From positions 1 to 64,000 of the IMG/VR virus record IMGVR_UViG_3300047557_002158: 64,000 nt of DNA; one strand, 5' to 3'. Of this stretch, positions 57,631-61,391 are shown piece after piece (within the stretch, counting starts at the first letter, position 1; the number at the start of each line of letters is the position of its first letter). The notes under the pieces were generated by a model. That model was not told the DNA's origin. It saw nothing but the letters and a program-made list of their open reading frames with translations, and ran no database searches. A program made the position numbers and the translations under genes. This DNA is from a virus.

Positions 57631-58080
57631 ATGTCAGTTACTTTAAAGAACCTAGAGAGTGCATTGGCTGGTGAGTCAATGGCACACATCAAATATCGTT
57701 ATTTTGCGAAGATTGCTCGTGAAGAAGGATTCGAAGATGTTGCAAAACACTTTGAACATACCGCTGATCAAGAAATTAAACATGCATGGGGTCATTTGGA
57801 ATTGTTGATTGGTAAACCAACAACAAAAGAATGCCTCGAAAAAGCAATTGCTGGTGAGACTTATGAATACACTGAAATGTATCCACAATTCGAAGCCATT
57901 GCTATTCGTGAAGGTGAATTACAAGCAGCTAAAGAAGCACAAGAACAAACACAGGAGTCAAAACTTCATGCAGAACAGTTTAAAAAAGTCCTTGCATTGG
58001 CTGAGAAGCGTTTCACTGCTCTTAAAAAAGTGGAAGAAAGACACGCCAATGCTTACAAAGATGTATTAAGGAGTCTATAA
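57631..58080 (+). CDS. rubrerythrin-like diiron protein
   Basis: 149 residues. The ferritin-like four-helix core has its iron ligands in LAGESMAH (first Glu), DQEIKHA (ExxH), IAGETYEY (Glu) and ESKLHAEQF (ExxH). It lacks the C-terminal rubredoxin domain of canonical rubrerythrins, but a separate rubredoxin gene overlaps its stop. The pair likely reduces hydrogen peroxide or buffers iron. AAAGGAAA precedes the ATG. Confidence 0.92.
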   Translation: MSVTLKNLESALAGESMAHIKYRYFAKIAREEGFEDVAKHFEHTADQEIKHAWGHLELLIGKPTTKECLEKAIAGETYEYTEMYPQFEAIAIREGELQAAKEAQEQTQESKLHAEQFKKVLALAEKRFTALKKVEERHANAYKDVLRSL

Positions 58081-58217
58081 TGTCCGAAAAAGTTTACGTT
58101 TGTATAGTTTGTGGACATGTTCACGATGAGGAAACTGAAGGTGTTTGGGAAAATCTACCTGAAGATTTCACTTGTCCTGAATGTGGTGTTGGAAAAAATG
58201 AATACGAAACTATTTAA
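58080..58217 (+). CDS. rubredoxin
   Basis: 45 residues, starting in the rubrerythrin stop (TAATG). The two knuckles CIVCG and CPECG bind one Fe(Cys)4 centre; GVWENLPEDFTCPECG is the standard rubredoxin stretch. It is expected to pass electrons to the adjacent rubrerythrin. Splitting a normally fused two-domain protein into coupled genes is unusual but functional sense is clear. Confidence 0.9.
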   Translation: MSEKVYVCIVCGHVHDEETEGVWENLPEDFTCPECGVGKNEYETI

Positions 58218-58708
58218 GATTTCGTTAAAAACTGCCACCCAATTTTGAAACCAATGTAGAGAAAAAATACAACCATGAGAAAAATTGCACCAGCTAAAAA
58301 ATCTTCTGCCATTTTTTCTCTACGTTTTGCTACTTGTTTTATTCTTTCTAGTTCAGCAGCGTTACGCTCTTTGATTAGGCGTGTTCGTTCACGCAGCATG
58401 TCTTCCCAAACATCTGCGTTGCCACTATAAATTAATAGTTCTTTGAGTTCTTTTTCGGCATCCCTCAGTCTTTTCGAATTCATTGCAATTTCTAAAGCAA
58501 CAGCACTTAATTCACTATCACTTTTACCGACATTATCACCTTTTAATTTTACTGAAGCAGTATGTACTTTGTCGGATGAATTGAAAAACTTTACAAACTC
58601 ACCAGTTAAAGAATTGATATCTTTACCTAGAGCTATAGCCTTTTTAATATTGTTAACTGAAGATTGAGCCACACTAAAAGCGATGCCGATTGTTACAGGA
58701 TCAATCAT
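58214..58708 (-). CDS. conserved phage membrane protein, the only minus-strand gene
   Basis: 164 residues. IDPVTIGIAFSVAQSSVNNIKKAIALGKDI at the start (cited in part), a charged helical middle (RERTRLIKERNAAELERIKQ) and a C-terminal transmembrane helix (FLAGAIFLMVVFFLYIGFKIGW) are seen. I recognise the plan from membrane proteins of other aquatic phages. The function is unknown; lysis, exclusion or internal virion roles have no direct support. It is convergent with rubredoxin (4-nt overlap) and divergent from dCMP deaminase. No good ribosome site is visible. Confidence 0.78.
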   Translation of the reverse strand: MIDPVTIGIAFSVAQSSVNNIKKAIALGKDINSLTGEFVKFFNSSDKVHTASVKLKGDNVGKSDSELSAVALEIAMNSKRLRDAEKELKELLIYSGNADVWEDMLRERTRLIKERNAAELERIKQVAKRREKMAEDFLAGAIFLMVVFFLYIGFKIGWQFLTKS

Positions 58709-58728
58709 ATAATTATTTAGGATGTGAA

Positions 58729-59172
58729 ATGAAAGAAAAGTTTATTGGTGCATACATGAAAACGGCTGAGGTATTTGCTGAATTATCCTCGGCTCGTAGG
58801 CTTCATGTTGGTGCTATCGTGGTCAAAGATGATCGTATCATCTCTATTGGTTACAATGGTATGCCTTCTGGATGGGATAATAATTGTGAAGATGTAGTCA
58901 TACCGACCTTACCTTATCTACAAGGTGATGAACCTACTTTGAAAACTAAACCTGAGGTGCTTCATGCTGAAACAAATGCAATTGCAAAGTTGGCTAAAAA
59001 TGGCGATTCTTCTAATGGTGCCGTATTGTTTGTTACTCATGCTCCTTGTCTGGATTGTGCCAAACTTGTTTATCAAAGCGGCATCAATTCTGTGTATTAT
59101 CGCAATGCTTACCGTGATGAAAGTGGTATACGATTCTTGGAAAAGGCAGGAGTCTCGGTGAACAAAGTATAA
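58729..59172 (+). CDS. cd: dCMP deaminase (T4 cd-like)
   Basis: 147 residues from the ATG at 58729 (AGGATG upstream); a longer frame starts inside the divergent gene. Zinc ligands and catalytic Glu are in HAETNAI (about 79-85) and APCLDC (about 104-109). It converts dCMP to dUMP for dTMP synthesis, balancing nucleotides for an AT-rich genome. ARRLHVGAIVVKDDRIISIGYNG is the conserved N-terminal part (cited in part). Confidence 0.92.
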   Translation: MKEKFIGAYMKTAEVFAELSSARRLHVGAIVVKDDRIISIGYNGMPSGWDNNCEDVVIPTLPYLQGDEPTLKTKPEVLHAETNAIAKLAKNGDSSNGAVLFVTHAPCLDCAKLVYQSGINSVYYRNAYRDESGIRFLEKAGVSVNKV

Positions 59173-59750: not shown

Positions 59751-59779
59751 TTGACAAAACGCCTATATACCTTTATAAT
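59751..59779 (+). promoter_or_regulatory. sigma70-type promoter of the small RNA
   Basis: Consensus TTGACA and consensus TATAAT (59774-59779) with a 17-bp spacer, starting one base after the metallopeptidase stop. No coding gene follows until after the terminator at 59970. Confidence 0.88.
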
Positions 59780-59785
59780 TTAATT

Positions 59786-59970
59786 TTTTGGAGAAATTCT
59801 GTGTTGCACATATCGAAGCCCGTTCTATTAACATGCGAGTATCGCACACCATTTATTGGTAGCGATAATCAGTCATGGGTGAGCGGAAAAGGGGTATGTG
59901 GAACCTGATAGAATCTAAAAGTAAATAAAAAGTTTCACAAACCCCAGACCTAAAAAATCTGGGGTTTTTT
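59786..59970 (+). ncRNA. stand-alone structured small RNA, about 185 nt
   Basis: A consensus promoter and a strong terminator bracket a stretch with no credible gene. Predicted pairings: GAGTATCGC (59837-59845) with GCGATAATC (59862-59870), containing ACCA/TGGT inside; CACATA (59807-59812) with TATGTG (59895-59900); TTCTAT (59823-59828) with ATAGAA (59908-59913). The last two cross, so a pseudoknot is possible. It does not look like 6S, tmRNA, RNase P or SRP RNA. A regulatory or host-RNA-mimicking role is open. Confidence 0.75.
59939..59970 (+). terminator. Rho-independent terminator of the small RNA
   Basis: AAACCCCAGA pairs with TCTGGGGTTT (10 bp) around an A-rich loop and merges into a run of six T. 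Confidence 0.95.
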
Positions 59971-59993: not shown

Positions 59994-60021
59994 TTGACAA
60001 AGAAAAAATTTCTGATATAAT
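59994..60021 (+). promoter_or_regulatory. sigma70-type promoter of tRNA operon 1
   Basis: TTGACA, 16-bp spacer, TATAAT at 60016-60021. Transcription should begin near 60028, directly at the boxA-like leader. Confidence 0.88.
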
Positions 60022-60028
60022 ACGCAAC

Positions 60029-60054
60029 TGTTCTTTAAAAAGTTAAGTGTAATT
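60029..60054 (+). promoter_or_regulatory. boxA-like antitermination leader, copy 1
   Basis: The block beginning TGTTCTTTAAAAAGTTAAG is identical over 26 nt to 61927-61952. TGTTCTTTAAAAA closely resembles the boxA of bacterial rRNA leaders, bound by NusB/S10. It lies at the transcript start and just before tRNA-Gln. Confidence 0.72.
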
Positions 60055-60056
60055 AA

Positions 60057-60130
60057 TCCCGGATTGTGTAGTGGTAGCACAGCAGACTTTGACTCTGTTA
60101 GTATAAGTTCGATTCTTATTCCGGGTGCCA
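60057..60130 (+). tRNA. tRNA-Gln (anticodon TTG)
   Basis: Cloverleaf with acceptor TCCCGGA/TCCGGGT, anticodon loop CTTTGAC, T-arm ATAAG-TTCGATT-CTTAT and encoded CCA. The first acceptor pair is a T-T mismatch; glutaminyl-tRNAs commonly have a weak first pair. Its CCA is part of the following inverted repeat. Confidence 0.93.
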
Positions 60131-60224
60131 TATTAAAGCATGTTATAGTGACGCATGAGCAGGTCATTAACTTCCGCTGGTTACGTCAATCGTAAGTGGG
60201 TGAAGGTAATATGCTTTAATATGG
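60128..60224 (+). ncRNA. hairpin-closed RNA after tRNA-Gln
   Basis: CCATATTAAAGCAT (60128-60141) is the perfect reverse complement of 60211-60224, a 14-bp closing stem that includes the tRNA's CCA. Inside are two arms: GTTA..GTGAC/GTCAT..TAAC and TTACG-TCAAT-CGTAA, giving a three-way junction of about 97 nt. It may be a stable RNA like T4 species 1 and 2, or a processing signal. Confidence 0.68.
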
Positions 60225-60243
60225 TAATATAAGGAGATGTACA

Positions 60244-60702
60244 ATGAAAAAAATTGTATTGTCTATATTATTGTGTATGCCATTGTTTGCAAATGCATGT
60301 AAAGGTTATGTAATAGGTTTTAAAGGTTTGAATGAATCTTTTAATTCTGTTGCGTTTCAAAAATACGCGGATCGTTTAGGTTATTGTGGTAAATCTTTTT
60401 CCTGGTTTCAAGATAAAGAAGCATTACAGTACATTCAAACACTAAAGAAACCATATCGCCTTTATGGTTTTAGTAGAGGCGCACAGACAGTTTCGGATGT
60501 GTTAAAACAAACGAAAACAAAACCTGAATATGTTTTAACAATCGGTGCATACAAAACAACAAATGTAAATTTTGATAAACATCGTGTTCGTTATGATAAC
60601 TTCTTTGATCAATCTGGTGTTGGTCAGAAAAGTCCAGGAGTATTTTTCAATGTATCTCATGCGGATATAGAAAAAGAAGTAAGTGAATTTTTGATAGAAT
60701 AA
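60244..60702 (+). CDS. secreted alpha/beta-hydrolase-like protein
   Basis: 152 residues. The N-terminus (KKIVLSILLCMPLFANA) is a signal peptide, with cleavage probably before Cys19. YGFSRGAQT near residue 78-86 is a GxSxG-type nucleophile elbow, and VSHADIEKE near the end could supply a His. Two Cys near the N-terminus could form a disulfide. It is short for a full lipase, so it may be a minimal esterase-like protein acting in the periplasm, perhaps at the envelope. AAGGAGA precedes the ATG. Confidence 0.72.
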   Translation: MKKIVLSILLCMPLFANACKGYVIGFKGLNESFNSVAFQKYADRLGYCGKSFSWFQDKEALQYIQTLKKPYRLYGFSRGAQTVSDVLKQTKTKPEYVLTIGAYKTTNVNFDKHRVRYDNFFDQSGVGQKSPGVFFNVSHADIEKEVSEFLIE

Positions 60703-60703
60703 T

Positions 60704-60795
60704 GGAAGCGTGCCAGAGCCCGGTTTATTGGAACAGTCTTGAAAACTGTCGTGTCAGAAATGGCACCGTGAGTTCGAATCTCACCGCTTCCACCA
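60704..60795 (+). tRNA. tRNA-Ser (anticodon TGA)
   Basis: Acceptor GGAAGCG/CGCTTCC, anticodon loop CTTGAAA, long variable arm (about 18 nt) as required for serine, T-arm with GTTCGAATC and encoded CCA. It begins 1 nt after the hydrolase-like gene. Confidence 0.95.
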
Positions 60796-60811
60796 ATTTT
60801 AGGAGTTTAAA

Positions 60812-61387
60812 ATGCCAGCAGTGTTTCTTGTAAGTGACACACACTTTGGTCATGCTGGTGTGTGCCGGTTTCTTCGTGAAGATGGAACAAAACTTAGGCC
60901 ATGGGATTCACCAGAAGAAATGGATGAAGCAATGGTTAAAATGTGGAACGAAACAGTTCGTCCAAATGATAAAGTTTACCATCTTGGCGATGTTGTGATC
61001 AATCGTAAAGCTCTAAGTATTTTACATAGGCTTAACGGTGATAAAATTCTGATTCGTGGCAATCATGATATCTTTAAACTTGAGGATTATACTCGACACT
61101 TTAGAGATATTCGTGGTTACCATGTGATGAACGGGATGATTCTTTCACACATCCCTGTCCATGAAGAAAGCCTTGGAAGGTTTGGTACAAACATTCACGG
61201 TCATTTACACGCTAATCGTGTCATGAAAGTGGACGAGTATGGCACTTCATGGATTGATCCACGTTACCATTGTATTTGCGTTGAGCAAACTGATTTCCGC
61301 CCTATATTGTTTGAAGATGTGTTGAAGCGTATCAGAGAAGAAGGTGGTGGTATCGGTTTCCGTAATGGTAACGGTCCAGCAATGTGA
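60812..61387 (+). CDS. calcineurin-like metallophosphoesterase
   Basis: 191 residues. Metal-binding motifs in order: SDTHFGH (8-14), LGDVV, GNHD, HIPVH and GHLH. This set fits small phage phosphoesterases acting on nucleic acid ends, cyclic nucleotides or phosphoproteins; the substrate is unknown. AGGAG precedes the ATG. It lies between two tRNA-Ser genes in the same operon. Confidence 0.9.
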   Translation: MPAVFLVSDTHFGHAGVCRFLREDGTKLRPWDSPEEMDEAMVKMWNETVRPNDKVYHLGDVVINRKALSILHRLNGDKILIRGNHDIFKLEDYTRHFRDIRGYHVMNGMILSHIPVHEESLGRFGTNIHGHLHANRVMKVDEYGTSWIDPRYHCICVEQTDFRPILFEDVLKRIREEGGGIGFRNGNGPAM

Positions 61388-61391
61388 AAGA

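What the first reader, a model, noticed from the sequence alone, without database searches (positions are those of the whole stretch)
59751..59970. Phage-encoded stand-alone small RNA with possible pseudoknot
Consensus promoter, ~185-nt non-coding body with one strong hairpin and two crossing stems, and a 10-bp terminator. It is a complete transcription unit with no credible protein and no known RNA class recognised.
Basis: partly seen in the sequence, partly recalled or inferred. Interest (0 to 1): 0.72.

Follow-up and report, generated by a model that had tools for sequence, protein, structure and literature searches.

The report
Phage tRNA-array attenuator with twenty-amino-acid leader
Just upstream of a large cluster of phage tRNA genes sits a short RNA switch whose tiny peptide contains nearly every one of the 20 amino acids, so a shortage of any charged tRNA should stall the ribosome on it and let transcription run on into the tRNA genes.

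Summary
The unit is real: perfect sigma-70 promoter, structured transcript, terminator. But it is not a non-coding RNA. It encodes a 35-aa peptide (59801-59908) found in 63 distinct versions across T4-like phage contigs. All 17 distinct indels inside the ORF are multiples of three (6 of 32 outside it). The "crossing stems" are alternative pairings, not a pseudoknot: the ORF's 3' end (B) pairs either with the ORF's 5' part (A) or with the terminator's 5' arm (C). The B:C antiterminator covaries strongly (8 of 13 pairs with double changes, 0/500 shuffles). This is the layout of a trp/his-type attenuator. A tRNA array follows on the same strand in 61 of 63 (the other two are contig ends); here it has 29 tRNAs for all 20 amino acids. 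The leader contains all 20 amino acids in 45 of 63 versions and 19 in 14 more; same-length stretches of phage protein average 14, and swapping flanks between versions loses the property. Best explanation: a pan-amino-acid attenuator. A ribosome stalled on any starved codon frees B, B:C forms, and transcription reads through into the tRNA genes. Architecture and composition are shown computationally; function is inferred. I found no published precedent.

The parts
59751..59779 (+). Leader promoter, TTGACA-17-TATAAT; transcription start expected near 59786
   Evidence: 12 of 12 consensus positions
59790..59793 (+). Shine-Dalgarno GGAG, 7 nt before the start codon
   Evidence: Sequence; GGAG, GAAAG or AGGAAG at the same place in most non-leaderless relatives
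59801..59908 (+). Leader peptide ORF, 35 aa, MLHISKPVLLTCEYRTPFIGSDNQSWVSGKGVCGT, GTG start, TGA stop; 19 of 20 amino acids (lacks Ala)
59807..59826 (+). Segment A: 5' part of the ORF that pairs with B (anti-antiterminator)
   Evidence: covariation not above shuffles
59840..59866 (+). Conserved core hairpin (AUCGC..ACCA..UGGU..GCGAU) between A and B, inside the ORF; possibly a polymerase pause hairpin (inference)
59891..59904 (+). Segment B: 3' end of the ORF (GGGGTATGTGGAAC); pairs with A or with C
59932..59945 (+). Segment C: 5' terminator arm plus the bases before it (GTTTCACAAACCCC); pairs with B to form the antiterminator
   Evidence: 91.1% paired, 8 of 13 pairs with changes on both sides, 0/500 shuffles
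59942..59970 (+). Intrinsic terminator CCCCAGA-loop-TCTGGGG-TTTTTT (C:D)
   Evidence: a terminator of this kind follows the ORF in the relatives
59994..60021 (+). Second promoter TTGACA-16-TATAAT, between terminator and tRNA array
   Evidence: present in most relatives, absent in L144, L191, L113
60029..60041 (+). boxA-like TGTTCTTTAAAAA before the first tRNA
   Evidence: Sequence resemblance
60057..64000 (+). tRNA array, starting with tRNA-Gln; 18 tRNAs in the window, 29 in the record (to about record position 65580), all 20 amino acids

Best explanation
A ribosome-mediated transcription attenuator that controls a phage tRNA array and senses shortage of any aminoacyl-tRNA. RNA polymerase starts at the leader promoter and a ribosome follows on the 35-codon leader. 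If every codon is decoded promptly, the ribosome runs to the stop codon next to segment B and masks it, so the terminator (C:D) forms and transcription ends. If no ribosome loads, A:B forms and C:D again terminates. If the ribosome stalls between roughly the first few codons and about codon 24, A is masked and B is free; B captures C, the terminator cannot form, and polymerase reads through into the tRNA genes. Because the peptide contains nearly all 20 amino acids, depletion of almost any tRNA (for example by a host tRNA-cleaving defence) would give this signal, and the response is a full replacement tRNA set. Shown computationally: ORF, alternative pairings, covariation, position, composition. 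Inferred: that stalling happens, the direction of the response, the trigger during infection.
For: (1) Coding: distinct gap runs in the ORF are multiples of 3 in 17 of 17, vs 6 of 32 in the UTR; frame 0 has no stops in 20 of 20 representatives and positive amino-acid conservation; start codon conserved, with Shine-Dalgarno or leaderless. (2) Switch: B:C covaries (91.1% paired, 8 of 13 pairs with two-sided changes, 0/500 shuffles on all five measures, slid controls at most 57% paired; 0 of 5000 permutations). (3) Ribosome-occlusion folding of the window unit: free RNA P(term) 0.95; ribosome 3' edge at ORF nt 11-89 gives P(anti) ~0.5 vs P(term) 0.07-0.19; edge at 95 or beyond gives P(term) 0.91-0.95. 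Over 63 units: free 0.88/0.06, edge at stop 0.96/0.00. Before D is made, C pairs with B in 57-61 of 63 units with the ribosome edge between codon 4 and just before B, and in 0 of 63 at the stop. (4) Composition: 45 of 63 peptides have all 20 amino acids, 14 have 19; windows of the phage's own proteins reach 20 in 0.006% (35 aa) to 0.05% (38 aa); flank-swapped chimeras reach 20 in 30% vs 71% observed, 0 of 2000. His, Ala, Cys and Gln sit at non-homologous places in different lineages yet stay present. (5) Target: tRNA array downstream on the same strand in 61 of 63, the other two being contig ends; 29 tRNAs for all 20 amino acids here. The window's leader codons address 25 of the 27 distinct anticodons; 34-codon gene windows average 16.6, maximum 24.
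Against: Most relatives, the window included, have a second strong promoter and a boxA-like site between terminator and array, so the array can be transcribed without read-through and the gain may be modest. A:B covariation is not above shuffles in the register tested, and before D is made C:B already has probability 0.45 without a ribosome, so termination without translation depends on A:B forming first. In several members (L047, L117, L093, L115, L186) equilibrium folding with the full terminator favours termination at nearly all ribosome positions, so B:C there would have to win kinetically. The window's own peptide lacks Ala; 4 of 63 peptides lack two or three residues. The 63 peptides are related: 20 clusters at 80% identity, 6 at 65%. 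No expression data.
Confidence: 0.78

Rival explanations
1. A conserved small phage protein (about 35 aa) with a function of its own, expressed from a structured mRNA; the terminator simply ends the gene.
For: Conserved ORF with W, T, Y and Cys-containing motifs; own promoter and terminator; frame-preserving indels.
Against: No family in PHROGs, Pfam or NCBIfam. Both ends of the peptide change beyond recognition while the amino-acid set stays complete. The coding sequence is selected for RNA structure beyond its amino acids, and its last codons covary with the terminator arm, which a plain protein gene does not need. Median dN/dS only 0.53.
Confidence: 0.1
2. A leader-peptide attenuator, but sensing general translation speed or ribosome loading (or one particular amino acid), not each of the 20; the amino-acid diversity is a by-product.
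For: Any elongation block between A and B would free B. Some members lack 1-3 amino acids.
Against: Completeness far exceeds chance and depends on matched flanks; rare residues such as His, Cys and Ala are kept at different positions in different lineages.
Confidence: 0.15
3. A stand-alone regulatory RNA, acting in trans or on a protein; the ORF is incidental or secondary.
For: Strong fold and fold excess over synonymous recodings; own promoter and terminator.
Against: All ORF indels are multiples of three, start and frame conserved, amino-acid completeness, and fixed position before tRNA arrays.
Confidence: 0.04

Closest known systems
Ribosome-mediated transcription attenuators of amino-acid operons (E. 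coli trp, his, leu, ilvGMEDA leaders; from general knowledge)
   Same: Short leader ORF, ribosome position deciding between mutually exclusive antiterminator and terminator helices, functional genes downstream.
   Different: Known leaders carry runs of one or a few control codons for the product amino acid. This one samples nearly all 20 amino acids without runs, and the genes behind it are a phage tRNA array.
T-box riboswitches (from general knowledge)
   Same: Antitermination upon tRNA starvation.
   Different: T-boxes bind uncharged tRNA directly and are amino-acid specific. No T-box match here, and the leader is an ORF.
Phage tRNA-rich regions that counter tRNA-targeting defences (T5 tRNA-Tyr against retron-Eco7, PMC11555353; PMC10264068)
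   Same: Phage tRNAs replace depleted host tRNAs.
   Different: The T5 paper names a strong promoter (section heading). I found no description of a starvation-sensing switch for a phage array.
rRNA-operon leaders with boxA (Nus-factor antitermination)
   Same: Second promoter followed by GTTCTTTAAAAA-like boxA before the tRNAs.
   Different: Resemblance only; it lies downstream of the attenuator and is missing in some relatives.

Membership tests
Ribosome-mediated (leader-peptide) transcription attenuator | Short leader ORF with its own translation start | tested here: met
   Conserved ORF and start, frame-preserving indels; translation itself not shown
Ribosome-mediated (leader-peptide) transcription attenuator | Mutually exclusive antiterminator and terminator helices, the antiterminator overlapping the leader ORF | tested here: met
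   B:C covariation, occlusion scan
Ribosome-mediated (leader-peptide) transcription attenuator | Anti-antiterminator (A:B) that enforces termination without a ribosome | tested here: inconclusive
   Favoured in folds, no covariation above shuffles
Ribosome-mediated (leader-peptide) transcription attenuator | Control codons for one or a few sensed amino acids, usually as a run | tested here: not met
   No run of one codon; instead nearly all 20 amino acids, far above chance. This is the point in which it departs from classical members; it works like one but is a variant
Ribosome-mediated (leader-peptide) transcription attenuator | Downstream genes relieve the sensed shortage | tested here: met
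   tRNA array for all 20 amino acids; array downstream in 61 of 63
Ribosome-mediated (leader-peptide) transcription attenuator | Read-through rises upon ribosome stalling | not testable with these tools
   Needs a reporter or RNA-seq
T-box riboswitch | Match to the T-box covariance model | tested here: not met
   No T-box among Rfam matches at gathering score or E up to 10
Stand-alone non-coding sRNA | Absence of a conserved ORF | tested here: not met

The most novel reading that the evidence does not exclude
The first known 'pangram' leader peptide: an attenuator selected to contain all 20 amino acids, so that loss of any tRNA during infection switches on a complete phage-encoded tRNA set. 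It would be a general sensor for host tRNA-depleting defence or starvation.
Probability: 0.68. Interest if true: 0.92.

Novelty: new variant of a known kind. Interest (0 to 1): 0.88.

Why it matters
How and when phage tRNA arrays are switched on, and whether they answer host tRNA depletion, is an open question. This element would tie array expression to translation stalling on any codon. It gives a directly testable circuit and a possible ready-made sensor of aminoacyl-tRNA shortage that could be moved into reporters. It also shows that conserved 'non-coding' phage RNAs may hide translated leader peptides.

Tried and rejected
Known RNA families: no Rfam hit. Known protein families for the peptide: none in PHROGs, Pfam or NCBIfam (the few PHROGs rows are single-member matches at E 0.06-0.5). 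GenBank phage isolates carrying the unit: none (the weak hits look like chance). Pseudoknot: the crossing stem is an alternative pairing. CTATATA as a phage late promoter: not enriched. A:B covariation: not significant. Codon-level sampling of tRNA species beyond amino-acid choice: only slightly above synonymous shuffles (mean z about 1), so not claimed. Two GenBank homologues of the upstream gene show no tRNA genes annotated in the 12 kb on either side.

Full report
What was claimed and what is there. The promoter is a perfect sigma-70 match. The transcript folds much better than dinucleotide shuffles (z -4.75, none of 200), and no Rfam family matches. The record is a 68-kb virus record from a T4-like myovirus: major head protein, portal, tail sheath, large terminase and an SbcC-like subunit match PHROGs families, and its major head gene is about 72-75% identical to those of T4-like cyanophages.

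It is translated, or at least selected as an ORF. Relatives were reached through the neighbouring upstream gene and through a DNA pattern. Aligned, they show that 59801-59908 is an ORF: GTG start with GGAG seven bases upstream, 35 codons, TGA stop. There are 63 distinct versions of 31-44 aa. In a nucleotide alignment made without knowledge of the frame, all 17 distinct gap runs inside the ORF are multiples of three, against 6 of 32 in the region between stop codon and terminator. Only this frame is free of stops in all 20 representatives tested, and amino-acid exchanges in it are milder than expected. In the conserved centre of the window-type members, changes such as CCA/CCG/CCC, GGT/GGC/GGA, AGC/AGT and CAG/CAA are synonymous. 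Purifying selection on the peptide is only moderate (median dN/dS 0.53), and the coding sequence folds better than synonymous re-codings of itself in every representative (z -1.4 to -4.7, mean -3.2 over 22). The RNA is therefore constrained as well as the peptide.

The switch. The last codons of the ORF (B, GGGGTATGTGGAAC, 59891-59904) can pair with an early part of the ORF (A, 59807-59826) or with the 5' arm of the terminator (C, 59932-59945). B:C shows strong compensatory evolution. Over 50 sequences, 91.1% of cells pair, 8 of 13 pairs change on both sides, no shuffle of 500 reaches the observed value on any measure, and sliding by one column drops pairing to 52-57%. Duplexes of B with its own C average -19.6 kcal/mol against -15.1 for mismatched partners, 0 of 5000 permutations. 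Examples are L115 (CAAAAACCTC with GGGGTTTTTG), L186 (CACCAAACCC with GGGTTAGGTG) and L138 (twelve consecutive pairs). Because the sequences are related, the permutation counts are not probabilities; the slid controls and the changes in separate lineages carry the weight. The A:B pairing is favoured in folds but does not covary above shuffles. Folding with a ribosome masking the 5' part reproduces textbook attenuation for the window. With no ribosome the terminator has probability 0.95. With the ribosome's front edge at ORF nt 11-89 the antiterminator wins (about 0.5 against 0.1). With the edge at nt 95 or beyond the terminator returns (0.91-0.95). Across all 63 units the free state and the stop-codon state favour termination (0.88 and 0.96). 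Before the last terminator arm is made, C pairs with B in 57-61 of 63 when the edge lies between codon 4 and just before B, and in none at the stop codon; without a ribosome it already does so in 38 of 63, so termination without translation relies on A:B forming first. For some members (L047, L117, L093, L115, L186) equilibrium folding alone does not favour the antiterminator, so kinetics would have to decide.

What it senses. The peptides are nearly complete samplers of the amino-acid alphabet. Of 63, 45 contain all 20 amino acids, 14 contain 19, two 18 and two 17. Windows of equal length from the phage's own proteins contain about 14 and reach 20 in 0.006% (35 aa) to 0.05% (38 aa). Keeping each core but swapping flanks between members drops the fraction with all 20 from 71% to 30% (0 of 2000 reach the observed value), and random flanks reach 7%. 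Residues move without leaving the set: His is in the N-terminal part only in 31, in the core only in 4, in the C-terminal part only in 19; Cys, Ala, Gln, Pro and Phe also sit in different parts in different members. Members with a PFIGSDNQ core often lack Gln and Phe elsewhere, while those with an NCGD core carry them in KPF.LQ. The window's own peptide lacks only Ala; its closest sister L002 has all 20. The window's leader codons address 25 of the 27 distinct tRNA anticodons of its array (34-codon gene windows: mean 16.6, maximum 24). Because the synonymous-shuffle excess is small, I claim sampling at amino-acid level, not at codon level.

What it controls. ARAGORN finds 29 tRNA genes for all 20 amino acids in the record, the first starting 87 bases after the terminator. 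In 61 of 63 units a tRNA array, usually beginning with tRNA-Gln, follows on the same strand; the other two are contig ends. Most, this window included, have a second promoter and a GTTCTTTAAAAA boxA-like element in between. In L144 and L191 the first tRNA starts 9-10 bases after the terminator, and in L113 what reads by eye as a tRNA-Ser gene begins right behind it, so there the leader promoter is the only evident source of array transcripts. That leaves open how much read-through adds where the second promoter exists.

Interpretation. The best-supported mechanism is ribosome-mediated attenuation that reads 'some aminoacyl-tRNA is missing' and answers with a complete tRNA set. tRNA depletion is a documented host response and defence during infection, and phage tRNAs are known to counter it (PMC10264068; PMC11555353). 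Searches of the held literature gave no account of attenuation or of a complete-alphabet leader for phage tRNA arrays; subscription journals are largely outside that library. Stalling, the direction of response and the trigger remain inferred.

Membership. By architecture it works like a leader-peptide attenuator. It departs from the known ones in sampling the whole alphabet rather than carrying a run of one control codon, and in standing before tRNA genes of a virus; I therefore file it as a new variant. It is not a T-box, not a known sRNA and not a pseudoknot RNA.

Noticed in passing
window 60130-60222: Spacer behind the first tRNA has a perfect 12-bp inverted repeat at its ends (ATATTAAAGCAT / ATGCTTTAATAT) around ~70 nt. 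Similar inverted flanks (..ATAAAAACACA / TGTGTTTTTAT..) follow a tRNA in L012, L058 and L060.
   Followed up: no
window 59994-60041: Second perfect sigma-70 promoter followed by TGTTCTTTAAAAA, like the boxA of rRNA operons; present before the tRNA array in most relatives.
   Followed up: partly
window 60057-64000 and record to 65580 (L309): 29 phage tRNAs covering all 20 amino acids, interspersed with small ORFs such as a calcineurin-like phosphoesterase at 60812-61387.
   Followed up: partly
L063, L054, L093 and relatives: In several lineages the leader starts with ATG only 6-7 bases after a -10-like box (TATAATAACACTATG), which suggests a leaderless mRNA.
   Followed up: no
window 57631-59172: Rubrerythrin-like protein (57631-58080) and a cytidine/deoxycytidylate-deaminase-family protein (58690-59172) upstream of the unit.
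   Followed up: no
L004, L012, L040, L041: L041 carries an extra ORF that looks by eye like an acetyltransferase between the upstream gene and the leader, and L012 a fragment of one. L004, L012 and L040 have tRNA genes but no leader of this family in the 900 bases read.
   Followed up: no
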